Source of the DNA: Chondrosia reniformis
Lineage: Eukaryota > Porifera > Demospongiae > Chondrillida > Chondrillidae
Length of the DNA stretch: 64,000 nucleotides
NCBI GenBank assembly: GCA_947172415.1
Contig: OX359194.1
Span: 248,001 to 312,000, forward strand
Direction: 5' to 3'
A program made the position numbers and the translations under genes. This document shows, piece after piece, positions 2,263 through 31,500 of this stretch (its first letter is position 1; the number at the start of each line of letters is the position of its first letter). The notes below the pieces were generated by a model. That model was not told the origin of the DNA. It was given only the letters and a program-made list of their open reading frames with translations, and made no database searches.

Positions 2263-3730
2263 GTGCTGTATCATGAGGATCGATTCCAAGATGTCCTTAG
2301 TGAGCTAGTGAGAGCTAAATGGGCCCATGGACAGACAATTGTGTGCAGTCACTACATTAAAAACTTACAAGTACGTAAATAAGAGAGATTGCATACACAT
2401 TTGTGTTGGACACTCAGACTTGTGGAGCTCTAGGATTAGAAGATGAGAATTTTGAATGTACTGAACTGTCTAGAATGTAATTTATTGTTTTATGTTTAAA
2501 AAGTCTTCAATCAGACTGAGAATCCTATATTTATTGCTATATACAATACACATTCATATATAGTATAGTATAGGGTGTAAATGTATGGGTTGACTAGTGC
2601 AATGTAAAGTTGACTTTCAATACCTGTTCTATTGTCTCATTTCTTTCACTTGAAGGATGTCGTTCTACCTCAACACCTTCAACACTTGATAGAGTGGAGG
2701 ATTAATGAAGAGAATGAAGAGAATGGAACAGTAGACACTTACTGGATTGAACAAGACTACACAAAACGGTAAGTGTACGTACATATATCTTGACCATATA
2801 ACTACCACATACTACAGCCGTACATGGGTTTGGTCAGATGTGGGACATGAGTGGTGTCTCTCATAGCTTGATGGATTGATACTTCACTATCTTGTCCTAT
2901 ACAGGCTCAACCAACTACATATACTATAACTATTATTAGTGATATATAGTACATACACATATATAGCAGTTTCAGTATATTCTAGGATACTTGCTCAGTA
3001 TACCCATTTCTCCCTTCAGTGACCAGTGGTCAGAGTTGATAGCCTTTGACTATTTAACAGGAAATACAGATCGACTGGTCAACTTGCTGACAAATTACCA
3101 ATATAATAGAGACATTGTTTCCAGTCCAGTTCACAATCTGGCTCAAAATGGGAATGGGGATCTGATATTCCTAGACCACGAGACCTCATTTCTAGTCGGA
3201 TACAAGTTTTCAAAAGATCACAAAGAAAGCAAAGCATTTCAGGTATATCCTTATATGGTAATGTGAATCTTACCTCCACTAACTACAAATGGAATCCATT
3301 TAATTGTTACAGTGACTGTTATATATTTAAATTGGCAGCCTTTACAATCTATAGTATATAGTATAGAGTATATAATTTCTTCACTTACTACAGAACAAAT
3401 GTACATATAATCACTTTTCATTCTCAATACCCTCTACATACATGTTAGCCAATCAATTTGTGTTTCATCATTTCTCTATTTTCTAAACTTTAGGAGTTCT
3501 TTATGAGAAACATTTGTCCCTACTCTCCAGCACTCATCAGGAAGGTGTCACCATTTTGTTCCCATCCATCTACAGTTGGATTGGCTGTCTCACAGCTGTT
3601 CAAATCTGTAGATCCTAAAGGCTGGAGGACAGTGACTGACCTGCCTCCAACACTACTGGAGGAGCTCTCCCTCAGAACAGAGACATTCTGTGGTCATCTG
3701 GTGACAGAGTGTAGAACTAGTTTAACTTGA
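2263..3730 (+). CDS. Four-jointed/FAM20-family kinase-like protein, 3' exons only
   Basis: Four exons can be read: 2263-2370, 2656-2768, 3020-3242 and 3494-3730. They have GT-AG borders and agreeing phases, about 226 residues in all. The product matches the C-lobe of the four-jointed box (FJX1) secretory-pathway kinase family: an LSELVRAKW segment, then DVVLP, then WSELIAFDYLTGNTDRLV, then the acidic metal-site strand IFLDHE followed by GYKF, and a C-terminal Cys/Leu helix ending ETFCGHLVTECRTSLT. Family members act in the Golgi lumen on secreted or cadherin-like substrates. The signal anchor and N-lobe that should lie upstream are absent. In their place is the decayed Cys-rich gene copy, whose homology ends near 1997. 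The locus is therefore probably truncated by a duplication breakpoint. An undetected upstream exon or a fusion transcript is the alternative. Confidence 0.72.
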
Positions 3731-4120
3731 CACACACTAGTAAACTCCTCTTCATGTTCTATTTTATATATAACACTTCATCAATAATGTCAATTGTATT
3801 TTCAATCTGTATTTTTAAAATCATATATATAAAGTTACAGTAGCCATGAAAGTATTAAATACGTAGTTTTACGTTTGGGCACGTGATAATTCCCATATTT
3901 GGAATGGAGAAGAAATCGACCATGTGTTGGGCGTCTCCGTATTTTTGCGATCTATCATAAGAAAGAGTTAAAGAACCTTGAGATAGACAACTTGTAAAAT
4001 AGCCTCGGTAGCTAAAGTAGATCTTACGAAAGAGTAACTCTTTAGCCCTTCTAAAAATAGAAGCCGTACAACTAGTTGCAGAAGCGCTCTGCCCTCGCTA
4101 GTGGCTTAAAAAGGTGATCG
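3731..4120 (+). promoter_or_regulatory. Intergenic/promoter region of NLR1 with E-box and CArG box
   Basis: This gap separates the four-jointed-like stop from the caspase-NLR start. It contains a CACGTG E-box at 3880-3885 and a perfect CArG/SRF-type decamer CCATATTTGG at 3893-3902, about 220 bp before the start codon. No open frame or CARD-like exon was found here, so NLR1 appears to begin directly with the caspase domain. The functional role of the two motifs is inferred from consensus only. Confidence 0.4.
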
Positions 4121-7100
4121 ATGGCAGTGGCAAATACAAGCAGCTTCTTTCTTGTAGTAAACAGCTACTATAATACCCAATTTGATCCGGTACCGTATAC
4201 TGATGAAGGATTGAAATTGTATACGGAAACTTTCTATAAGTATCTTTCATTTTCACAGTATGGAATCTATTTCGATTGTAGCAAGGAATACTTTATGCAA
4301 GTTTTTATCGATTTTCTGCAAGGAAAAGGTCGATACACTACCAAGTATTTCGCCTTTATATTCTTGGGTCATGGGAGTGGAGGACGCCTCTTAATGAACG
4401 ATGGACAATCGGTCAGTATCCAGGTTATCATAGACGAGATTAACAAATTTGTTCCAGAGCAAGTCTCCAAACTGTTTATAATCAACGCCTGCCGTGAAAA
4501 TGAGCAATTGGTGCTTCCGAAGACCCCGAACTCAATCTATATTTACGCGACCCTTCCCGGGAGAAAGGCAATCCCCGCGTGGTCTAAGTACTTTAATGAT
4601 GAATTGCGAACAAACGCAGGCGATTTGCATGCTGTATGTTTCTCAGCATGTGCAAAAGTGAAGGAATACCTTAATAGTAATGTTGAGCCAAGCCAATATA
4701 TTAGCAATGGTCTTCCTGCTCCAAAGCTGCTACAGAGCGAAACTTTTAGATTAGAAATTCCTGGTGCTATTTTAGGGCGTCTTACTACATATTCCCAATT
4801 AATGGAACAATACCGAGGTATGTATGGTTTTAATTTGTATGTATGGGTATTCCATATCATGTACATTTTACATTTGATCTCATCAATGGCAACCTATATA
4901 GTGTTATTGTATTTTATTTTATATCAGCAAGGGATCCTTCATTCGGAAATGTTGGGCAACAACCTCTTTTGACTCCAGAGGCTTCAGCATATCTTTCAGG
5001 CGGTTCAAAGGGTATGTATGACATGCATTTGCTAAAACAGAATTCACTGTAAAACACCGTTTGCACCACAGTATATTATATTTGTGGAATTCAAAATGCA
5101 TAATGTAATAATTAATTAGTAACTGCACTCATACATTGTGTCATTAAACTAGAAAGACATGAAAATTGAGAAATTCAGCTATGGGTTCTGTAAAAATGTT
5201 AGGTCTGACCGAATACTAATAGTTTCCCATGGTAGTTTGATGTGTACATAAGTATGGTACATATATAGTGTGTTAGATGTTTAGCACGTACACACGTATA
5301 CGTATACAACCACACCACTTCAAATACTCTGTTTTTCTTAGATTCTCAGCACTCTAATGGAGGAAGAATACCTCCTCAGAACATACTTCCTCAGAATGTA
5401 CCTTATCAGAACATGCCTCCTCAGAATGTACCTCCTCAGAATGTACCTCTTCAGAATGTACCTCCTCAGAACGTACCTCCTCAGAACGTACCTCCTCAGA
5501 ACGTACCTCCTCAGAATGTACCTCCTCAGAATGTACCTCCTCAGAATGTACCTCCTCAGAATGTACCTCCTCAGAACGTACCTCTTCAGAATGTACCTCC
5601 TCAGAACGTACCTCCTCAGAACGTACCTTATCAGAATGTACCTTATCAGAATGTACCTCATCAGAACGTACCTCATCAGAACGTACCTCCTCAGAACATA
5701 CCTCCTCAGAATGTACCTCTTCAGAATGTACCTCCTCAGAATGTACCTCCTCAGAATGTACCTCCTCAGAATGTACCTCTTCAGAATGTACCTCCTCAGA
5801 ACATACCTCCTCAGAATGTACCTCCTCAGAACGTACCTCCTCAGAATGTACCTCCTCAGAACGTACCTCCTCAGAATGTACCTCCTCAGAACGTACCTCC
5901 TCAGAATGTACCTCCTCAGAACGTACCTCCTCAGAACGTACCTCCTCAGAATGTACCTCCTCAGAATGTACCTCCTCAGAACGTACCTTATCAGAATGTA
6001 CCTCTTCAGAATGTACTTTATCAGAACATACCTCCTCAGAACATACCTCCTCAGAACGTACCTCCTCAGAACGTACCTCCTCAGAATGTACCTCCTCAGA
6101 ACGTACCTTATCAGAATGTACCTCCTCAGAACGTACCTCCTCAGAATGTACCTCCTCAGAACGTACCTTATCAGAATGTACCTTATCAGAATGTACCTCT
6201 TCAGAACGTACTTTATCAGAATATACCTCCTCAGAATGTACCTTATCAGAACGTACCTCCTCAGAATGTACCTTATCAGAACGTACCTCCTCAGAATGTA
6301 CCTTATCAGAATGTACATGAGGTTGATCTTAATCAGTCTGCTCTACCAGTAAGTGTATATATTTATTCTGTAGTTACGTATATATAGAGTGTACTATACA
6401 GGTTTATGAAATTTGTCATATACGTGTCTAGTTATGTATGCTAACAAAATTCAGTTAAAGGAACTACGATCTCTACATTTGTATACTGTTTAATATTTAT
6501 TATATATAAAATAATCTCCTATCTAGTAAGTGTATGTACATTCTGTAACTATATATCTCTCTACAAGTAAGTGTACTTTCTGTAACTATGTATATATAGA
6601 GTGTACTATACAGGTTTATGAAGTGTGTCATATGCCATGTACCTAGTTATGTATGCTAACAAAATTCAGTTAAAGGAACAAAGATCTCTACATTTGTATA
6701 CTAAATAATATTTATTATATAATATGTAGTAATTCTCATGTAAATATGCTATATATGTCTCATTCTGTAGGACCCTCTATTAAAGCTACAAAAAAAAGCA
6801 TTTGGTGTATACGAGTCGTATAAACTGGCTGAAGGAGACAGTGAAGTAACATTTGTCAGACTAGCCATTGTGAAGAACAAGCCATCAGTCTTAGAGACAA
6901 AGGGAGATCAATTAGAAACATTAAAACGATTAAGGGAGTGCGGTCCTAAAAGTGAAAACATAGATGTTAAAGATTTAGCAAAGCAATGTAAAGATAGGAG
7001 ACGAATCGTATATGGTCAAGCGGGAGCAGGAAAGACAACTGCCATGAAGCACATCTGTCAACAAGTAGCTCTCTCTCAAATCAAGAGTGATTATGCGCTC

Positions 7101-10100
7101 ATTCTCTTCTTTCCCTTGAGAGATGAGAGTGTTTCTAAGTGTACCGACCTCCCCAGTCTACTCGAATACTATGGGGAGGGGTCCTCTGAAGACACAACCA
7201 AAATGCTAGAGGAAGGAAAGGGCCGAGACACATTGCTGATATTTGATGGTGCTGATGAAGCTAGAGAGCTTTTACAGAAGGGATCCAATTCTGTCCTTTT
7301 GAAGCTGTTAGAAGGGAAGTTGCTACCGGAAGCCTCAATCATACTTTCCAGTCGACCTGGTGTATGTCCTGAACTACAGAAATATGTCAATCAGTTCTAT
7401 GAAGTGCAGGGATTTGATGAGGTTGCTATTAAGGCCTACGTGACGGAGTTCTTCAAAGATGATCCAGGTTCTGCTGAGAGAATGTTGCAGACCATCAGTG
7501 ATCGTCCTGATTTGGAGGGCGGAGCCTACATTCCAATGAATCTGTTTATTTTCTGTTCCACTTTCAAAGCCAATGAATATTCACATCCTGCCACCATCAC
7601 AGAATGTTACCAAGGTCACGTTAGTGAGCTGTGTTCTAGGGAATGTGAAAAAGAGGGAAGAGATGTCTACATTGACCCAACTCTTTCTGAGCTCCCTGAA
7701 GACCTACAGGACCTCCTTCGGCGTCTAGGAGAACTTGCATTTAATGGTTTGACAGCTAAACCATCCAACTACATTTTCAATGAGAAAGCCATTCGGAAAG
7801 TCTTCCCTGAAATTAAGGAAAAGCCCGAAGACTCCCTTTTCAAAGGACTCCTTCAATTACACAGTGGAAAACCTGGATTTAGGCCAACATTCTCTGGCAA
7901 CTTCTCCCATGCAACTCTCCAAGAGTTCTTTTCTGCCCTTCACCTGAGTCCGCTCTCTGAAAAGGATCAGGTGATATTTTGGAAGGAGCACATTTTCAAT
8001 CCATCCTTTGCTGTGGTCTTGCGATTTTATGCTGGGCTGACGAAATTATCTTGCAAAGATTTCATCCCATTATGTCTTATCACGCCTCCTGCCACTTCCA
8101 CAACAGCTGCTCCTCCCAATGTAGCTGGTGCTACTCTGCAGCTGCCAGCTAAATCTGATCAGCAGAATCCTCAGCTCCTCATTCTTTTGCATGCGCTTCA
8201 TGAGTCTCAAAAGAAGACTATTATCTGTGAAACATTGAAGCACTTGAATAGTTCACTTAGGTTTTTTAATCTAGGTTCATTTGATGCAATGGTTGCACTA
8301 AATTGTTTAGCACACTGTACTCATTTGGTTGAGTTGTTTATGCATGGAAACAGAAATCCATTTCCTGTTGAGAGTGTTAAGCGTTTACTACACAACAATC
8401 AAAAGTTGCAAAAGCTGGGATATATTGTCCTTGATCACTTGACTGAAGATGGTAAGACATTACTTTACATGTTATTATTGTTTCATACTTTAAAACTGTA
8501 ACAAATTAAATAAGTAGATATTTCTGTCTATATGACCACAAAGAGTGAGTCTTTAGTCTATTTCTTAATTTATTGTTAAGCATACATTTGTTATTGATAA
8601 GCTTAATGAGTGTTGACTATGTTAATAATGATAAAGTGTGTGTTTGTGTTTGTATTAGATGCAGTGACTATGTTCACAAGAATTACATGTTCAGTGAAGG
8701 AGCTGGATCTGAACATTACTAAGTCCACTTCAGTATCTGCCATAATGAGAGTGTTTTCATTGAAGGGATTGGAGACACTGAGATTGAGCCTTAGTGGCTG
8801 TACAATAACAGTGAGTCACTATGCATCATTTTTTCTAATGTCTATGTCACTATTTTGAAGCAGGTAACTGTATATTAGCTGTAACCTCATGTATATTACC
8901 AAATAGTTAATAGGTGCACTATAAGTTCTTAATGATTCTCCTAACCTGTGAACTTACAGGCTAATATATATGCAAACAAATTATAAGTTGACTTAGTTTT
9001 TAACTTTAGCCATGCAACGTTGGATAACTTGTTTGTCATTTAATGTAAGTCATTCTGTGTTGTATTTTTAAAATTTATTTATGCATGCAGGAATCTGAAG
9101 GTAGCTCATTAGAGGAACTTGTTCGTAGTAATCTCTCTCTGAAGGAGTTCCGTTTGTATTGTTCACATGCCAAGAGACTGTCACGCAGACAATTCTTTGA
9201 TTGTCTCTCCATTGTTACTAATCTTTCAAGTCTTGAGAAATGTAATGTTCAGCTATCAGAATTATCAGAAAGAGGTATGCTATTATGTGGTTTTGAATGA
9301 GATTATACTGTATGTAGTTGATAGTGTTTGTTATTGATTAGCTTAATGAGTGTTGACTATGTTAATAATGATAAAGTGTGTGTTTGTGTTTGTATTAGAT
9401 GCAGTGACTATGTTCACAAGAACATGTTCAGTGAAGGAGCTGGATCTGAACATTGATGAGTCCACTTCAGTATCTGCCCTAATAGAAGTGTTTTCATTGA
9501 AGGAATTGGAGACACTGAGTTTGTACCTTCGTGGCTGTACAAAAACAGTGAGTCACTATGCATCATTTTTCTAATGTCTATGTCACTATTTTGAAGCAGG
9601 TAACTGTATATTAGCTGTAACCTCATGTATATTTCCAAATAGTTAATAGTTACACAATAAGTTCTTAATGATTCTCCTAATTTGTGTACTTACGGGCAAA
9701 TATATATGCAAACAAATTACAAGTTGATTTAGTTTTTAAATGTAGCCATGCAACGTTGGATAAATTGTTTGTCATTTAATGTAAGTCATTCTGTGTTGTA
9801 TTTTTAAAATTTATGCATGCATGCAGGAATATGAAGGTAGCTCATTAGAGGAACTTGTTCGTAGTAATCTCTTTCTATTGACTTGTTTGTAACTGGTAAT
9901 TATATTAATTCTTTCTTCTCTCTCTTGTTATATTCTTTATACTTATATATAAGGGTTCAATATACAATATTTCTTTAAATGTACAGTATTTGTTCCACCA
10001 GTTTCAACTCAAGTTCTATTGAACATAATAATGTGAATACATGTATATTTATAAATGTTATAATATATTTATAAATTTAAATGTATGTAGGGATGTGAGG

Positions 10101-11313
10101 AAGAATTTGAATCATTAAAATCAGCTATCAACAATAACAGTCACTTGAACAAGTTAGCATTTCGAATTCATTGTAATCAGATGAAGAGACCGTCCCATTC
10201 CAAGTGTATTGAATGTATATCTCAGAGCAGATCAATTAATTACTTGGAGGTTGAATCAAGTAAGTTCCTTTTATCAAGTCTGTGTTTAGCATTGAAATTT
10301 GTACATTTCATTGTATCAATCATACGTACTGTATACATTTGTTTGACACACTTATTGTTAGTCTTTTTACACATTTGTTCTCTTTATGTATGTGATGCCA
10401 GCTACATGACTGTACAGTGAATGTATTCTAAAAAAAACGAACAGTGCTGATATATTTCATTGTTCTTTCCACAGCCAGTGGACATGACCTGGTTCCTGTG
10501 CTGGAAATGGTACAGTTGAGGAGACTCATAGTGAGGAACACAGATCCAGTACCTCTACTACATTCATTAAAGAACAGAAGAGATGTATTAGAAGAATTAA
10601 TATTTGTTATCGATTGGTATTTTGAATCATGGGTCAGTTTTAAGTGTGTTTGCTATCTTTAGCTGTTTGACTGACATTGTTTAGAATGATCTTTTTAATT
10701 GTTAAATATTCTGTAAGTATATTTTGATGTATTATGTATATACTGTAACTGTGATTAAAGCTAGGACATTGTAAAGGAATATCACGTTCTGTAATACCTA
10801 CCATTCCACTGACATTCTGTGTTAGAGGAGTCATGTTTGTATTTACATTTGTATTCATCTGACAGTCACTTTGTTTAATATACATACATATATACACTAT
10901 AGATTGTAGCTAAGCTAAATTGTCTTTATACATACATTTCTATTAGTATACATTCTTATAAGAGATATTCTAAGATGAATATGTAAGGTATATGGTAGTT
11001 ACATCAAATGAGTCCTTTAGCCTATTTTGTATGATGTAATGTGCTATGTATATTACATTTGCTGATGTAGGTTGAGACTGTTGACCTGAATGAGATGGAA
11101 GTAGCATGCTCAGCAGCTCAAGTCAAAACACTTGGTGTTGTTGGGATATCACACGTTACTGACTTAAAGAAAATGGCAAAAGCAATCAGTGCTGGTATCT
11201 CAAGGAATGAACATGTTCAAACTGTAAAGTCACTTGAGAAATGTCCAGTACAGAGCTCAAATGAGAAACATAAAAACATTACAGCTACATGGGGAGAGCT
11301 TCGTTCTCTTTAA
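4121..11313 (+). CDS. NLR1: caspase-like - PPQNV repeat - NACHT - LRR receptor
   Basis: Ten exons: 4121-4817, 4928-5011, 5342-6348, 6771-8451, 8659-8810, 9091-9274, 9399-9547, 10091-10259, 10475-10632 and 11071-11313. All borders are GT-AG, the phases agree, and the total is 4524 nt (1507 aa). Residues 1-232 are a caspase/peptidase C14-like fold, with His84 in FIFLGHGSGG and Cys124 in KLFIINACREN as the presumed catalytic dyad. A p10-like segment (YATLPGRKA, SKYFNDEL) follows. Residues about 261-596 are mostly PPQNV pentapeptides. NACHT starts near residue 600: Walker A GQAGAGKTT (about 678), Walker B LLIFDGADEA (about 755), sensor SIILSSRPG, winged-helix segment YIPMNLFIF. The C-terminal LRR exons are 149-184 nt modules. 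Family knowledge predicts a cytosolic sensor that oligomerises through NACHT; self-activation of the fused protease is my inference. The start was chosen because the preceding 390 bp hold no upstream exon. Confidence 0.85.
5370..6318 (+). repeat. 15-bp coding minisatellite encoding PPQNV repeats
   Basis: About 60 head-to-tail copies of a 15-bp unit (CCTCCTCAGAATGTA) inside exon 3 of NLR1. They encode PPQNV with variants LPQNV, PYQNV, PHQNV and PPQNI. All three forward frames stay open through most of the array. The paralogous exon of NLR2 (28804-28868) has the same flanks (SNG before, DPNQSTLP after) but no expansion. The array therefore arose after, or was lost since, the duplication. It is predicted to be a disordered linker between the protease and NACHT. 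Confidence 0.95.
9827..9892 (+). pseudogene. Decayed LRR exon in NLR1
   Basis: An AG acceptor is followed by EYEGSSLEELVRSNL, matching the good LRR exon at 9091. The reading frame then runs into a TAA after 22 codons and no donor follows. The exon before and the exon after are both phase 0, so skipping this one preserves the frame. The same lesion sits at 32133-32198 in NLR2, so it predates the NLR duplication. Confidence 0.8.
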
Positions 11314-12499: not shown

Positions 12500-15400
12500 T
12501 CATGATCGTACGTATATACAATCACATGATCATATATGCAACCACATGATCATATATATGCAACCACATGTTCGTATATGCAACCACATGATCGTATATG
12601 CAACCACATGATCATATATACAACCACATGATCATATATACAACCACATGATCGTATATACAACCACATGATCATATATACAACCACATGATCGTATATA
12701 CAACCACATGATCGTATATACAACCACATGATCCTATATACAACCACATGATCATATATACAACCACATGATCATATATATGCAACCACATGATCGTATA
12801 TATACAACCACATGATCCTATATACAACCACATGATCATATATACAACCACATGATCGTATATACAACCACATGATCATATATACAACCACATGATCATA
12901 TATATGCAACCACATGATCGTATATATACAACCACATGATCCTATATACAACCACATGATCGTATATACAACCACATGATCATATATACAACCACATGAT
13001 CGTATATATACAACCACATGATCCTATATACAACCACATGATCGTATATATACAACCACATGATCGTATATACAACCACATGATCGTATATACAACCACA
13101 TGATCATATATACAACCACATGATCGTATATATACAACCACATGATCCTATATACAACCACATGATCGTATATATACAACCACATGATCATATATACAAC
13201 CACATGATCGTATATACAACCACATGATCATATATACAACCACATGATCATATATGCAACCACATGATCGTATATACAACCACATGATCATATATACAAC
13301 CACATGATCATATATACAACCACATGATCTTATATACAACCACATGATCATATATACAACCACATGATCATATATATACAACCACATGATCATATATACA
13401 ACCACATGATCGTATATACAACCACATGATCATATATACAACCACATGATCATATATACAACCACATGATCATATATACAACCACATGATCGTATATACA
13501 ACCACATGATCATATATACAACCACATGATCATATATACAACCACATGATCGTATATACAACCACATGATCATATATACAACCACATGATCGTATATACA
13601 ACCACATGATCATATATACAACCACATGATCATATATACAACCACATGTTCGTATATACAACCACATGATCATATATACAACCACATGATCATATATACA
13701 ACCACATGATCATATATACAACCACATGATCGTATATATACAACCACATGTTCGTATATACAACCACATGATCGTATATATACAACCACATGATCCTATA
13801 TACAACCACATGATCATATATACAACCACATGATCATATATACAACCACATGATCATATATACAACCACATGATCATATATATACAACCACATGATCGTA
13901 TATATACAACCACATGATCATATATACAACCACATGATCGTATATACAACCACATGATCGTATATACAACCACATGATCATATATACAACCACATGATCA
14001 TATATACAACCACATGATCGTATATACAACCACATGTTCGTATATATACAACCACATGATCCTATATACAACCACATGATCGTATATATACAACCACATG
14101 ATCGTATATACAACCACATGATCGTATATATACAACCACATGTTCGTATATATACAACCACATGTGGTTGTATATAGGATCATGATCATATATACAACCA
14201 CATGTTCGTATATATACAACCACATGTTCGTATATACAACCACATGATCATATATACAACCACATGTTCGTATATATACAACCACATGTTCGTATATATA
14301 CAACCACATGTTCGTATATACAACCACATGTTCGTATATGCAACCACATGATCATATATACAACCACATGTTCGTATATATACAACCACATGATCATATA
14401 TATGCAACCACATGATCGTATATACAACCACATGATCGTATATATGCAACCACATGATCGTATATACAACCACATGATCGTATATACAACCACATGATCA
14501 TATATACAACCACATGATCATATATACAACCACATGATCATATATACAACCACATGATCATATATATACAACCACATGATCATATATACAACCACATGAT
14601 CATATATATACAACCACATGTTCGTATATACAACCACATGATCATATATATACAACCACATGTTCGTATATACAACCACATGATCATATATACAACCACA
14701 TGATCATATATACAACCACATGATCATATATACAACCACATGATCATATATACAACCACATGATCATATATACAACCACATGATCATATATACAACCACA
14801 TGATCATATATATACAACCACATGATCATATATACAACCACATGATCATATATATACAACCACATGATCATATATACAACCACATGATCATATATATACA
14901 ACCACATGTTCGTATATACAACCACATGATCCTATATACAACCACATGATCATATATATACAACCACATGATCATATATACAACCACATGATCATATATG
15001 CAACCACATGATCATATATACAACCACATGATCCTATATACAACCACATGTTCGTATATATACAACCACATGATCCTATATACAACCACATGTTCGTATA
15101 TACAACCACATGATCGTATATACAACCACATGATCATATATACAACCACATGTTCGTATATACAACCACATGATCATATATACAACCACATGATCGTATA
15201 TACAACCACATGATCCTATATACAACCACATGTTCGTATATACAACCACATGATCGTATATACAACCACATGATCATATATACAACCACATGATCATATA
15301 TACAACCACATGATCATATATACAACCACATGATCATATATGCAACCACATGATCATATATACAACCACATGATCATATATACAACCACATGATCATATA

Positions 15401-17169
15401 TACAACCACATGATCATATATACAACCACATGATCATATATACAACCACATGATCATATATGCAACCACATGATCCTATATACAACCACATGTTCGTATA
15501 TATACAACCACATGATCATATATACAACCACATGATCGTATATACAACCACATGATCATATATACAACCACATGATCATATATATGCAACCACATGATCG
15601 TATATATACAACCACATGATCCTATATACAACCACATGATCATATATACAACCACATGATCGTATATACAACCACATGATCATATATACAACCACATGAT
15701 CATATATATGCAACCACATGATCGTATATATACAACCACATGATCCTATATACAACCACATGATCGTATATACAACCACATGATCATATATACAACCACA
15801 TGATCATATATACAACCACATGATCGTATATATACAACCACATGATCCTATATACAACCACATGATCGTATATATACAACCACATGATCGTATATACAAC
15901 CACATGATCGTATATACAACCACATGATCATATATACAACCACATGATCGTATATATACAACCACATGATCCTATATACAACCACATGATCGTATATATA
16001 CAACCACATGATCGTATATACAACCACATGATCATATATACAACCACATGATCATATATACAACCACATGATCATATATATGCAACCACATGATCGTATA
16101 TATACAACCACATGATCCTATATACAACCACATGATCATATATACAACCACATGTTCGTATATACAACCACATGATCATATATACAACCACATGATCATA
16201 TATACAACCACATGATCATATATACAACCACATGATCATATATACAACCACATGATCGTATATACAACCACATGATCATATATACAACCACATGATCATA
16301 TATACAACCACATGATCATATATACAACCACATGTTCGTATATACAACCACATGATCCTATATACAACCACATGATCGTATATACAACCACATGTTCGTA
16401 TATACAACCACATGATCATATATACAACCACATGATCATATATACAACCACATGATCATATATACAACCACATGATCATATATACAACCACATGATCGTA
16501 TATACAACCACATGATCATATATACAACCACATGATCGTATATACAACCACATGTTCGTATATACAACCACATGATCATATATACAACCACATGTTCGTA
16601 TATACAACCACATGATCATATATACAACCACATGTTCGTATATATACAACCACATGATCGTATATACAACCACATGATCATATATACAACCACATGATCA
16701 TATATACAACCACATGATCATATATACAACCACATGATCATATATACAACCACATGATCGTATATATACAACCACATGATCGTATATACAACCACATGAT
16801 CATATATACAACCACATGATCATATATACAACCACATGATCATATATACAACCACATGATCATATATACAACCACATGATCATATATACAACCACATGAT
16901 CGTATATACAACCACATGTTCGTATATATACAACCACATGATCATATATACAACCACATGATCATATATACAACCACATGATCCTATATACAACCACATG
17001 ATCGTATATATACAACCACATGTTCGTATATACAACCACATGATCGTATATATGCAACCACATGTTCGTATATATACAACCACATGTTCGTATATACAAC
17101 CACATGTTCGTATATACAACCACATGATCGTATATATGCAACCACATGATCGTATATACAACCACATGA
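12500..17169. repeat. 4.7-kb satellite array, 20-bp unit
   Basis: About 230 tandem copies of CATATATACAACCACATGAT and its CG, TTCG, CC and 22-bp variants. Groups of variants recur in order. For example, a run of about 124 bp that begins with the TATATATGCAACC variant and includes the CCTATATAC variant recurs near 12773, 12897, 15572 and 15702, indicating higher-order repeats. The array lies in the intron between ASM copy-1 exons 10 and 11. At the intact ASM locus the same site (about 34880-34925) holds only one or two degenerate units. Confidence 0.95.
14146..14190. repeat. Single inverted unit inside the satellite
   Basis: One unit is flipped, giving a perfect palindrome (TATATACAACCA/CATG/TGGTTGTATATA) followed by GGATCATGATC. 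It is the only orientation switch I saw in the 4.7-kb array. Confidence 0.85.
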
Positions 17170-25513: not shown

Positions 25514-28500
25514 TTGACGATGACGATGGATGAAAGAAAGCGTAAAGCTCTAAACGCCCTTCTTCCTGAAATGGAAAAAGACATTCTTGTAGATGCATTC
25601 TTATCGTCATTACACAGTGATACAGAGTACGGCTTTTTGAGTGACTACGAAATGGAAGAAGTACGGAAAACAGACAATAGAATTGAGCAATTCCGTTCTT
25701 TGATAGGCTTTTTGCGATCTAAAGGAAACGAAGACTTTTATAATTTCTGCCGCCTCTTAGAAGCATTCAATTATAAAGAATGGGCTAATAGGCTGAAGAA
25801 AATGGGTAAGTTGGATACTCCAAGTTTTGTAACCGTTGATCTGGGCTACGCGAGGCTATACATAGCTAGTTCTGTAATCCGTAAACTGTGCATGGTGTTC
25901 AACCACCCAGAAGCCAGGCGTGTGTACAGGAGTGCTAGCTAGTTATCTCAGGAGTCTGAGTATTTTGTAACTGGCACTGTTATACCCTCAATTTTACTGG
26001 TTGTTTCGTTTTTGCGAAATCCCGAAATAGGCTGAAAATCGCCGAAACAAGACCGTGTAATGTTAAATGTAGAACAGCAACGCTATAAACTGGCCTTGAA
26101 GGCAAGTGACTGTGTTCCGCTTTGTAATGATGCTTCAATATTTTTCCATTTTAAAGCACCAAAACCATTTGGTAGAGTGCCCCTTTCATTTCACTAATGA
26201 GAATGAAAAACTGGTATACGTATAAGTTGCCTGCCACAACTATGTATCTTAATTCTGCTAGCAATATAAAATCTCTTGAGTATTACAATCTCAAAATCTC
26301 TTGAGTATTACAATCTCAAAATCTATCACAATTGAATATGAATATATATAATACCTGGTTTCAATATAAATTTCCTATAGGTTTTCTATAGTCCTATGGC
26401 ATTTTATATGCAGACTTTGTTCGCTGGTTTCTAACAAACGGAGGCCTAAATGTAATTTAAAATGAGGGAAACTTTATGATGATATGCCCATTTTGTTTCT
26501 AGGTCCTTTCTTGGAGCCATATGAATTATTTAATTATATTATATTATATTATATTCGTATATATATTGTAACTTGTACTGTATATACAGTGCAAGTTACA
26601 ATATACAAAGGTAATCTAATATAAATAATTAAATAAATAATTCATATGGCTCCAAGAAAGGACCTAGAAACAAAATGGGCATATCATCATAAAGTTTAGG
26701 GTATAAAACTCATTTTAAATTAAGGGATTTTTGATTTAGGCCTCCGTTTCTTAGAAAACGGAGGACAAAGTTTGCATATAAAAGGCCATAGGACTATAGA
26801 AAACCTATGGGAAATTTATATGCAAACCATGTGTTATATTGATAAAAATTTTCAGTTTGTCCGATAACTGTGAAATCAACATATATCATGGTACATGTGT
26901 ATAAGAAACGTCTGGCGAAGTTTTGCTTAATTAAATGAGCAAAATAATCAAGATATAATGAAGAATTCAAAGTTACGATTGCGCAAGCTGGTGATGTATT
27001 GTGATGTTCTTCTATTGCGTCACCAACACCTTCGTATGTCGCTCGGTACACACATTTTGTGAATCTTGTGACGTTGCGAAAACGTCACCGCCTCGTTGCT
27101 AAAGAAGATCATCCTTTCGAGAACGGCTATGACAAGTCGACGCTCTCCTACGAGAAGGAGCTACCGAATAAGCGAGTTGTAGCGAAGGTTAGATAAAGCG
27201 TATTTGTATACGTTCATGTTAAGTTTAAGCCAGAATTGTTGCTATATATTGATGTAAAAGAAATTCGTACTTTGGTAATTTAAGCTCTGTCTTAGTCGAC
27301 GCTCTCCTACGAGAAGGAGCTACCGAATAAGCGAGTTGTAGCGAAGGTGAGATAAAGCGTATTTGTATACGTTCCCGTTAATTTTGAGGCAGAATTGTCC
27401 CTATACTGATGCAAAAGAAATTCGTTTAGTCGACCGTATTAAAACTTTGGTAATTAAAGCTCTGTCTTCTCTTCTTATGTTTTTATTCATTTTTTACTTG
27501 CAATTGTCTATGTGTAGGAATAAGGAGTGTTATATATTATGCTTGTTTAAATACAATCAAGTACTACACAGTGCAAGTTACAAATTTATGCACGGATGCA
27601 AGTGACTCCCAAGATAATCACACTGAGGTATATAATATAATACGGATGCAAATGACTCCCAAAATAATCACAATCAGGTATATTAAACGCTACAAGACTT
27701 TAGCCACACTGAAATTCTCAACTGCTGCATACAGAGTAGTAGTCTCTACAGATCATATAAGGTTAAATACATGGCCTTCCAATTACCTTTTCACACCTAA
27801 GTATAGACTGGAGATGATGCATCTGGATGCCATTATCAGCAAAAATTCCACACAGGGACATAAAGGCTGGGGCCTTTAATTTATTTCATGAACAATGTCC
27901 CTTGTGTGCAAGTTACCAAATCGTCTCTAACCCTGTTGTTTATGTGAATGCATGCAAGCAACCAATGGTACTCCTAGCTGACACTCAAGGCAAGTCAAAT
28001 CTGCGGTGATTATTGGCTGAGATCCCCTGCATGAGACTGGAATTTTTGCTTATAATGGCATCCAGATGCATCATCTTCAGTCTATACTTAGGTGTGAAAA
28101 GGTAATTGGAAGGCCATGTAATAATGGCTACTGCACCACTTTTCTGGTGTATTTAACCTTATATGATCTGTAGAGACTACTACTCTGTATGCAGCAGTTG
28201 AGAATTTCAGTGTGGCTAAAGTCTTGTAGCGTTTAATATACCTGATTGTGATTATTTTGGGAGTCATTTGCATCCGTATTATATTATATACCTCAGTGTG
28301 ATTATCTTGGGAGTCACTTGCATCCGTGTATAAATTTGTAACTTGCACTATATATATATATATGAATGTCTAAGTATATAGTGCTGGCTAATTACACTCA
28401 AGTACACTACACAGTGAAAGTTACTGGCAAATATATAAAGTATTGAAATTACAATCAAGTAGTACACAGTACAAGTTACAAATTTATGAGGTCCAAGTGA

Positions 28501-31500
28501 CTATATAATATTAAAATTACAATCAAGTACTAGCTACACATGTACATGCAGTGCAAGTTACAAATTTAAAGAGATCCAAGGACATAAAAGGCCAAGACCT
28601 TTATATATGTATGTCATATGATGTCCCTTGTGTACAAGTTACAAAATAAGAAGAATACTGTAGTAACGTCCATTTTATAGTAATTGTATAACTTTATACT
28701 TAAATGCTGATGGACAAAAGAATGATCATTTGAATGTTACTCATCAGATTACATAGAGTATATGTATGCAACCACACCACTTATATAAACATATTTTTCT
28801 TAGTTTCTCCTGACTCTAATGGAAAAAACGTATCTCCTCCGGTAGATCCTAACCAGTCCACTCTACCAGTAAGTGTACTTTCTGTAGCTACGTATATATA
28901 GAGTGTACTATACAGGTTTATGAAGTGTGTCATATGTCATGTGCCTAGTTATGTATGCTAACAAAATTCAGTTAAAGGAACAACGATCTCTACATTTGTA
29001 TACTGAATAATATTTATTATATAATATGTAGTAATTCTCATGTAAATATGCTATATATGTCTCATTCTGTAGGGTCCTCTATTAAAGCTACAAAAAAATG
29101 CATTTGGTGAATACAAGTCATATAAGCTGGGTGAAGGAGACAGTGAAGTAGGGTTTGTCAGACTGGCCATTATGAAGAACAAGCCATCAGTCTTAGAGAC
29201 AAAGGGAGATCAATTAGAAACATTAAAACGATTAAGGGAGTGCGGTCCTAAAAGTGAAATTGAGGGACACTTAGATGTTAAAGATTTAGCTAAGCAATGT
29301 AAAGATAGGATACGAATCGTATATGGTCAACCGGGAGCAGGAAAGACAACTGCCATGAAGCACATCTGTCAACAAGTAGCTCTCTCTCAGATCAAGAGTG
29401 ATTTTGCGCTCATTCTCTTCTTTCCCTTGAGAGATGAGAGTGTTTCTAGGTTTACCAACCTCCCCAGTCTACTCAAATACTATGGAGAGGGGTCCTCTGA
29501 AGACATCCCCATGGCAACCAAAATGCTAGAGGAAGGAAAGGGTCGAGACACATTGCTGATATTTGATGGTGCTGATGAAGCTAGAGAGCTTCTGCAGCAG
29601 AAGGGATCCGATTCTGTCCTTTTGAAGCTGTTAAAAGGGAAGTTGCTACCGGAAGCCTCAATCATACTTTCCAGTCGACCTGGTGTTTGTCCTGAACTAC
29701 AGGAAAATGCCAATCAATTCTATGAAGTGCAGGGATTCGATAAGCAGGCTGTTAAGGCTTACGTGAAGGAGTTTTTCAAAGATGATCCAGGTTCTGCTGA
29801 GAGAATGTTGCAGACCATCAGTGATCGTCCTGATTTGGAGGGCGGAGCCTACATTCCAATGAATCTGTTTATTTTCTGTTCCACTTTCAAAGCCAATCAA
29901 TATTCACTTCCTGACACCATCACAGAATGTTACCAAGGTCATGTTAGTGAGCTGTGTTTTAGGGAATGTAAAAAAGATGAAAGAGATGTCTACATTGACC
30001 CAACTCTTTCTGAGCTCCCAGAAGACCTACAGGACCTCCTTCGGCGTCTAGGAGAACTTGCCTTTAAAGGTTTGACAGCTAAACCATCCAACTACATTTT
30101 CGATGAGCAAGCCATTCGGAAAGTCTTCCCTGAAATTAAGGAAAAGCCCGAAGACTCCCTTTTCAAAGGACTCCTTCAATTACACATCGGAAAACCTGGG
30201 GGATTAAGGCCAACATTCTCTGGCAACTTCTCCCATGCAACTCTCCAAGAGTTCTTTTCTGCCCTTCACCTGAGTCAGCTCTCCGAAAAGGATCAGGTGA
30301 TATTTTGGAAGGAGCACATTTTCAATCCATCCTTTGCTGTGATCTTTCGATTTTATGCTGGGCTGACGAAATTATCTTGCAAAGATTTCATCCCATCATG
30401 TCTTGTCACGCCTTCTGCCACTCCCACAACAGCTGCTCCTCCCAATGTAGCTGGTGCTACTCTGCAGCTGCCAGCTAAATCTGATCGGGGGAATCCTCAG
30501 CTCCTCTTTCTGTTGCATGCGCTTCATGAGTCTCAAAATGAGACTATTATCTGTGAAACATTGAAGCACTTGAATAGTTCCCTTAAGTTTTATAATCTAG
30601 GTTCATTTGATGCGATGGTTGTACTAAATTGTTTAGCACGCTGTACTCATTTGGTTGAGTTGTTTATGCATGGAAACAGAAATCCATTTCCTGTTGAGAG
30701 TGTTAAGCGTTTACTACACAGCAACCAAAAGTTGCAAAAGCTGCAAGGATGTGTCCTTGATCACTTGACTGAAGATGGTAAGATATTACTTTACATGTTA
30801 TTATTGTTTCATACTTTAAAACTGTAACAAATATTTCTGTCTATATGACCACAAAGATTAGTTATTAGTCTATTTCTTAATTTATTGTTAAGCATACATT
30901 TGTTATTGATAAGCTTTATGAGTGTTGACTATGTTAATAATGATAAAGTGTGTGTTTGTGTTTGTATTAGATGCAGTGACTATGTTCACAAGAACATATT
31001 CAGTGAAGGAGCTGGATCTGAACATTGACGAGTCCACTTCAGTATCTGCCCTAATGAGAGTGTTTTCATTGAAGGGATTGGAGACACTGAGTTTGAGCCT
31101 TAGTGGCTGTACAATAACAGTGAGTCACTATGCATCATTTTTCTAATGTCTATGTCACTATTTTGAAGCAGGTAACTGTATATTAGCTGTAACCTCATGT
31201 ATATAACCAAATAGTTAATAGGTGCACTATAAGTTCTTAATGATTCTCCTAACTTGTGAACTTACCGGCTAATATATATGCAAACAAATTATAAGTCGAC
31301 TTAGTTTTTAACTTTAGCCATGCAACGTTGGATAACTTGTGTGTCATTTAATGTAAGTCATTCTGTGTTGTATTTTTAAAATTTATTTATGCATGCAGGA
31401 ATCTGAAGGTAGCTCATTAAAGGAACTTGTTTCTAGTAATCTCTCTCTGAAGGAGTTCCGTTTGTATTGTTCATATGCCAAGATACTGTCACAAAGACAA

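What the first reader, a model, noticed from the sequence alone, without database searches (positions are those of the whole stretch)
4121..11313. An NLR with a caspase-like protease domain fused to NACHT-LRR
The first exon encodes a C14-like fold with His84 (GHGSGG) and Cys124 (NACRE). It splices in phase through a small linker exon to the PPQNV exon and then to a canonical NACHT (GQAGAGKTT, DGADEA) and LRR exons. Ten exons sum to exactly 1508 codons, which would be unlikely if the caspase exon belonged to another gene. Most animal NLRs recruit caspases through CARD/PYD/death adaptors. Here the receptor would carry its own protease, resembling fused NLR-protease systems in fungi and bacteria. 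I recall caspase-NACHT combinations mentioned for coral genomes but cannot verify a sponge example.
Basis: partly seen in the sequence, partly recalled or inferred. Interest (0 to 1): 0.92.

Follow-up and report, generated by a model that had tools for sequence, protein, structure and literature searches.

The report
Sponge NLR carrying its own caspase
In a sponge genome, an immune-receptor gene of the NLR type seems to carry a caspase-like protease as its own front end, put there by a DNA-level swap with the recruiting domain that a sister gene uses.

The parts
4121..4817 (+). NLR1 exon 1: caspase-fold (Peptidase_C14) domain, His84 at 4370-4372, Cys124 at 4490-4492; exits in phase 1
4928..5011 (+). 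NLR1 exon 2: 28-residue linker, phase 1 in and out
   Evidence: GT-AG, in frame; peptide kept next to the C14 exon in C6:221657 (82% over 17 residues) and C6:1436402 (68% over 28)
5342..6348 (+). NLR1 exon 3: tether of 63 xxQNx pentapeptide units (PPQNV type); its 3' end DLNQSALP resembles the linker next to NACHT in sister NLRs
6771..8451 (+). NLR1 exon 4: NACHT with GQAGAGKTT (Walker A) and LLIFDGADEA (Walker B); motif names recalled
   Evidence: PF05729 E 5.1e-25
8659..11313 (+). NLR1 exons 5-10 (8659-8810, 9091-9274, 9399-9547, 10091-10259, 10475-10632, 11071-11313): LRR-like tail and stop
   Evidence: GT-AG and in frame; Pfam LRR models below cut-off, FTH 24.2 bits above cut-off 22
2900..4105 (+). 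5' flank shared with two caspase-free sister NLRs (C6:210527 gene 92.5% up to 4083; C6:239751 gene 89.7% up to 4105)
   Evidence: blastn; alignment
4107..5284 (+). Caspase cassette (exon 1, intron 1, exon 2, most of intron 2), 88.3% identical to the C14-Death-Death locus at C6:1437120-1435932, which has other flanks
   Evidence: blastn; Death domains by Pfam
25520..25805 (+). NLR2 exon 1: CARD-like domain in the position that C14 holds in NLR1; exits in phase 1
   Evidence: Pfam CARD E 0.0014, 19.0 bits, below cut-off 23.9; in frame to NACHT; AF2 low confidence, pLDDT 56
28804..28868 (+). NLR2 linker exon (VSPDSNGKNVSPPVDPNQSTLP), phase 1 in, 0 out, homologous to NLR1 exon 3
29073..30776 (+). 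NLR2 NACHT exon, 88.5% identical to that of NLR1 and its sister in a quick NACHT tree of 16 rows (SH-aLRT 98)

Best explanation
NLR1 encodes a single polypeptide: caspase-fold domain, long PPQNV tether, NACHT, LRR-like tail. Shown from sequence: the fold (by prediction), the intact His/Cys dyad, an open in-frame exon chain, and a chimeric gene in which a C14 cassette like that of a C14-Death locus occupies the N-terminal slot of an NLR under that NLR's own 5' flank. Inferred: ligand sensing by the tail triggers NACHT oligomerisation. This clusters the tethered C14 domains and activates them by induced proximity, without a CARD/PYD/Death adaptor, so the receptor itself cleaves targets, most likely for cell death or inflammatory-type signalling. 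Since the p20-p10 connection is short and the Arg that reads P1-Asp in caspases appears replaced by Val/Leu, the enzyme probably works as an uncleaved single chain (as the paracaspase MALT1 does, recalled) with non-Asp specificity.
For: Caspase fold: (profile of 11 genomic relatives to caspase-7 E 1.6e-8 across p20 and p10). Dyad: Cys in 11 of 11 aligned rows, His in 9 of 11 (11 of the 14 places were aligned; the three weakest were left out); all five C14 exons with a NACHT downstream keep both. Gene model. Chimera junctions at 4105/4107 and 5284/5296. Same slot and exit phase as the CARD-like exon of NLR2. Second gene C7:400271-405082, C14-linker-CARD-like-PPQN-NACHT, in frame through 986 codons with splice sites chosen by eye; its front part matches C7:381132-393671 and its back part the contig 6 NLRs. 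Module type does not follow the NACHT tree. Some constraint on the C14 exon: omega 0.53 (p 0.007) and 0.55 (p 0.02) for NLR1 against two of three close copies.
Against: No RNA evidence. The tandem sister C6:221657, which shares the chimera junction, loses frame in its second linker exon under the straightforward splice. Omega between NLR1 and that sister is 0.90 (p 0.41), and over six pairs of close C14 copies only three are below 1 at p < 0.05; two NACHT pairs tested are not below 1 either (0.70, p 0.09; 0.83, p 0.22), so relaxation or fast change is possible. The C14 Pfam score is modest, and legumain (C13) was the best single-sequence PDB hit (E 0.0043). CARD names rest on sub-threshold scores. 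LRRs are weakly supported. No protease activity is shown, and activation by proximity is borrowed from known caspases.
Confidence: 0.62

Rival explanations
1. Two genes: a short caspase-like gene ends after exon 1 or 2, and the NLR starts from exon 3 or another 5' exon; the in-frame chain is accidental.
For: Unspliced exon 1 stays open to 4972 (284 codons). C14 loci without a NACHT in the fetched flank exist (C6:1436402, C7:8367579, C6:2760228). The sister C6:221657 loses frame downstream.
Against: The 5' flank up to 16-38 bases before the C14 start codon is the 5' flank of two sister NLR genes, so the C14 exon stands where the NLR's first coding exon should be. No match to the N-terminal exons of the three other sisters appears between it and NACHT (blastn). 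Exon 3 needs a phase-1 exon before it, which exons 1-2 give. The C7 gene repeats the arrangement with a different C14 type.
Confidence: 0.12
2. Fused but catalytically dead or decaying: the C14 domain is a structural or decoy module, or the gene is on its way to a pseudogene.
For: Omega 0.90 between the two tandem copies; the frame is lost in the sister copy; S1 pocket departs from caspases; two distant C3 relatives have Tyr for the His.
Against: NLR1 itself is fully open with dyad intact; all five C14 exons with a NACHT downstream keep His and Cys; AF2 gives a confident complete fold.
Confidence: 0.18
3. Fused, but the C14 domain acts as a recruited or recruiting partner (heterodimer with a free caspase, in the manner of c-FLIP and caspase-8) rather than as the executing enzyme.
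For: The genome has other strong C14 loci (best E 5.3e-64) that could be partners; the caspase-8:c-FLIP complex is among the structural matches (3h11).
Against: His and Cys are kept, unlike in c-FLIP (recalled); no partner is identified.
Confidence: 0.08

Closest known systems
Sponge NLRX with CASc (Dysidea avara, PMC12909245)
   Same: Sponge NLR repertoire; CASc is listed among the domains in the NLR architecture figure (section 3.3 with its legend read; passages)
   Different: Gene, domain order, catalytic state and origin are not given in the text I read; the figure and supplement were not available; no cassette swap in the passages seen
CASc-RLR of the brachiopod Lingula (PMC8998645)
   Same: A caspase domain grafted on the N-terminus of a cytosolic immune receptor, with sibling paralogs carrying other N-terminal domains (passages)
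   Different: RIG-I-like receptor, not NACHT; lophotrochozoan
Fungal NLRs with an N-terminal protease (S8 or CHAT caspase-like) controlling gasdermin (PMC12881547)
   Same: The receptor carries its own protease as N-terminal module (passages)
   Different: Different protease families; there the target gasdermin gene is clustered with it, whereas the Pfam gasdermin model finds nothing in this genome
Inflammasome NLRs and caspase-1 (recalled)
   Same: NACHT receptor plus caspase-fold enzyme
   Different: Separate proteins joined through CARD/PYD contacts; here one polypeptide
Zebrafish NLR-B30.2 family (PMC4852459)
   Same: N-terminal exons shuffled between NACHT groups (passages)
   Different: Modules named there are death-fold domains and peptide repeats, not a protease

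Membership tests
Caspase (Pfam Peptidase_C14) | Pfam score above curated cut-off | tested here: met
   24.0 bits against 21.4; 11 of 11 rows of A1 match at E <= 1
Caspase (Pfam Peptidase_C14) | Complete p20+p10 caspase fold | tested here: met
Caspase (Pfam Peptidase_C14) | Catalytic His and Cys | tested here: met
   His84 and Cys124 fall in the caspase His and Cys columns of the profile alignment
Classical Asp-specific caspase | QACxG pentapeptide | tested here: not met
   Reads NACRE; other rows read for instance DACRS, EGCRK, DGCRD
Classical Asp-specific caspase | S1-pocket arginine of p20 (caspase-7 R87, numbering recalled) | tested here: not met
   Three residues before the column of caspase-7 TDKD, A1 has Val in 4 of 11 rows and Leu in 7 of 11 (by eye); the place lies just outside the HMM match, so moderately sure
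Classical Asp-specific caspase | Cleaves after Asp | not testable with these tools
   Needs enzyme assay
NLR (bona fide NACHT-LRR) | NACHT with Walker motifs | tested here: met
   PF05729 88.7 bits against 26.7; GQAGAGKTT, DGADEA
NLR (bona fide NACHT-LRR) | C-terminal LRR | tested here: inconclusive
   LRR_14 E 0.0082 and LRR_R13L1 E 0.007, both below cut-off
NLRC or NLRD (CARD or Death N-terminus) | N-terminal CARD or Death domain | tested here: not met
   The N-terminal exon is C14, with no CARD or Death hit at E <= 10
Fungal-type NLR-protease plus gasdermin pair | Gasdermin substrate in the genome | tested here: inconclusive
   No Pfam gasdermin match at E <= 10, but genes split by introns can be missed and the control genomes are prokaryotes, so there was no animal positive control

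The most novel reading that the evidence does not exclude
In this sponge, NLR N-terminal effector domains are swapped as DNA cassettes at a recurrent junction at or just before a repetitive PPQN linker exon, so that CARD-like modules and a catalytic caspase are interchangeable on nearly identical receptors. The caspase forms are adaptor-free, single-chain receptor-proteases with non-Asp specificity: an animal inflammasome in one polypeptide.
Probability: 0.4. Interest if true: 0.87.

Novelty: new variant of a known kind. Interest (0 to 1): 0.68.

Why it matters
NLRs and caspases are two ends of one pathway that animals usually join through adaptor domains. A gene that fuses them, next to a sister that carries a CARD-like exon in the same slot, lets one ask directly what the adaptor step adds. 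Because the NACHT exons are 88.5% identical, the pair is close to a natural domain-swap experiment. It also shows how effector modules can be exchanged between receptors at the DNA level in an early-branching animal.

Tried and rejected
Legumain (C13) membership: the single-sequence PDB search ranked legumain first (E 0.0043) and Pfam C13 came up at E 0.051, below cut-off. The profile of relatives and the structure comparison gave caspases at the top, so C13 was dropped.

Membrane-anchored short form: the open frame after the exon 1 donor reads as hydrophobic residues, but this stretch is T-rich intron before the exon 2 acceptor, and in the C6:1436402 copy the frame ends sooner. Not pursued.

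Horizontal transfer from a symbiont: the alignment search of 5.8 billion proteins returned 7 proteins at E <= 0.001; one is the window's own and the other six read, by eye, as copies in this genome. No relative from elsewhere was returned, so there is no support; the search only reaches relatives that share short words.

Gasdermin as target: no Pfam match in the genome. CARD fold by AF2: confidence too low to search with (pLDDT 56), so the CARD name rests on sub-threshold Pfam scores. The third sister, C6:239751, has an N-terminal exon without any Pfam match at E <= 1. The 5' flank of NLR2 showed no blastn match to that of NLR1 in the stretch given, so 2 of 3 non-caspase sisters share the flank. 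Exon chains of the C14 genes at C14:4434727 and C7:382406 were looked at but not completed. Genome lists of Death and CARD matches were not used further. Papers opened by passages and not used: PMC6321704, PMC4986451.

Full report
What the window is. It is bases 248001-312000 of contig 6 in a genome of 117,379,552 bases and 15 contigs. This matches the published Chondrosia reniformis assembly (117.37 Mb, 14 chromosomes plus mitochondrion; PMC12181767, search listing and start of abstract). The name is an inference from these numbers.

The gene model. Ten exons with GT-AG introns add to 4524 nt with one terminal stop. Exon 3 holds 63 units of a pentapeptide. NACHT is unambiguous. The tail is LRR-like at most: two LRR models fall below their cut-offs and FTH reaches 24.2 bits. 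A total divisible by three is weak evidence, so I looked for independent proof of linkage.

Proof from genome neighbours. The genome search scored 101 of 139 NACHT candidates, all 101 matching, and found 14 relatives of exon 1. Four of the 14 lie 1.7-2.7 kb upstream of a NACHT exon on the same strand, and a fifth lies 11.2 kb upstream. Of the 20 places that match Pfam C14, four were already in the list of 14; of the other 16 (three of which overlap weak members of the list of 14), none has a NACHT downstream nearer than 0.8 Mb on its strand.

Proof from the junctions. Contig 6 has five tandem NLRs; the other four NACHT exons are 87.3-88.5% identical to that of NLR1. Two of the five, NLR1 and the gene at C6:221657, have C14. 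Two have a CARD-like exon (C6:210527 and NLR2 in this window; Pfam CARD E 0.0065 and 0.0014, both below cut-off). One (C6:239751) has an unassigned exon. Upstream DNA of NLR1 matches the first CARD-like gene at 92.5% up to 4083 and the unassigned gene at 89.7% up to 4105. NLR2's upstream DNA does not match in the stretch compared. From 4107 to 5284 NLR1 instead matches, at 88.3%, a locus at C6:1437120-1435932 that is followed by two Death-domain ORFs. The copy at C7:8367579 matches from 4109, and its 5' flank resembles, by eye, that of the C6:1436402 copy rather than that of the NLRs, which suggests that the NLRs are the derived chimera. That C14-Death locus has a disturbed 5' end of its frame. 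Homology to the sister NLRs resumes at 5296 (C6:239751, NLR2; 78%) or 5332 (C6:210527; 76%), around the linker exon, and continues at 83-96% into NACHT. So both ends of the caspase cassette abut sequence of NLR genes, and its first exon takes the place of their first coding exon. The CARD-like exon of NLR2 leaves in phase 1, as the C14 exon does, and NLR2 reads in frame into NACHT.

A second case. C7:400271-405082 reads in frame through 986 codons: C14, short linker, CARD-like, PPQN linker, NACHT, with splice sites chosen by eye. In the whole chain C14 scores 21.6 bits (cut-off 21.4) and CARD stays below cut-off. Its front part (399045-402545) matches C7:381132-393671 in four pieces at 83-97%; its back part (from 403196) matches the contig 6 NLRs at 89%. 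The changeover lies between, before or within the linker exon at 403155. Its NACHT is separated from that of NLR1 by dS 0.085, while the C14 exons are saturated (dN 0.67). In a quick NACHT tree of 16 rows NLR1 groups with the CARD-bearing NLR2 (SH-aLRT 98), and the NACHT of the C6:221657 gene with the C7 gene (84, weaker). Gene conversion of the NACHT exon could also produce this pattern. Either way the N-terminal module does not follow the receptor.

Results against. The tandem sister C6:221657 shares the cassette but loses frame in a second linker exon under the straightforward splice. Omega for C14 between NLR1 and that sister is 0.90 (p 0.41); against two other copies it is 0.55 (p 0.02) and 0.53 (p 0.007). 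Of six pairs among the four close copies three are below 1 at p < 0.05, one is 1.02; the two NACHT pairs tested are 0.70 and 0.83, not below 1 by test. These are approximate NG86 counts with rounding, and the pairs are not independent. There is no transcript.

How it may work. Shown: predicted fold, dyad, open fused frame, cassette junctions. Inferred: NACHT oligomerisation clusters tethered C14 domains, which become active by proximity; the long PPQNV tether would allow contact within a ring. The stretch between the catalytic Cys strand (116-124) and the next strand (138-145) is short and lacks the insert of caspase-7, which suggests a single-chain enzyme. The position of caspase-7 Arg87 (recalled) carries Val or Leu, so P1-Asp preference is doubtful. 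Targets are unknown; a Pfam gasdermin was not found, in keeping with a published survey that reports only NLR and caspase-1 in Porifera (PMC11508797, passages).

What is in print. Six searches of an open-licence library, which lacks most subscription papers, gave no described animal caspase-NACHT-LRR gene in the listings and passages I saw, except that the legend of Figure 2 in the Dysidea avara NLR paper lists CASc (PMC12909245, one section and passages). The two papers I tried by DOI, meant to be the Amphimedon and Acropora NLR papers (DOIs recalled), are not held. Parallels: CASc grafted on Lingula RLRs (PMC8998645, passages), fungal NLR-proteases (PMC12881547, passages), shuffled N-terminal exons in zebrafish NLRs (PMC4852459, passages), bacterial caspase fusions in operons with AP-ATPase genes (PMC8195603, passages). 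Hence new variant of a known kind, with the cassette swap as the most interesting part.

Noticed in passing
window 12550-16051 at least: Long tandem satellite that reads on both strands as repeated short peptides (SCGCIYDHVVVY type), lying between NLR1 and NLR2.
   Followed up: no
window about 2967-3730: End of a gene (ORF QWSELIAFDYLTGNTDRLVNLL...) whose near copies also precede the NLR genes at C6:210527, C6:221657 and C6:239751, so gene and receptor seem to have been copied as one tandem unit; not identified by any search.
   Followed up: partly
C6:1435176-1437120 (L038): C14 exon followed by two Death-domain ORFs (Pfam E 1.8e-10 and 6.2e-7): a possible Death-domain caspase, with a disturbed start of frame.
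   Followed up: partly
C6:2757158-2760980 (L041): C14 exon (49% identical) followed by a different repeat-coding ORF (PPQAQAQ type) and a further ORF without Pfam match at E <= 1; another low-complexity tether after a C14 exon.
   Followed up: no
C3:1055102 and C3:1070170 (L042, L043): C14-like exons with Tyr in place of the catalytic His; possible pseudo-enzymes.
   Followed up: no
C6:119000-126378 (L044): C14-like exon upstream, on the minus strand, of a tandem series of near-identical ORFs resembling fibronectin type III (name by eye, no Pfam call).
   Followed up: no
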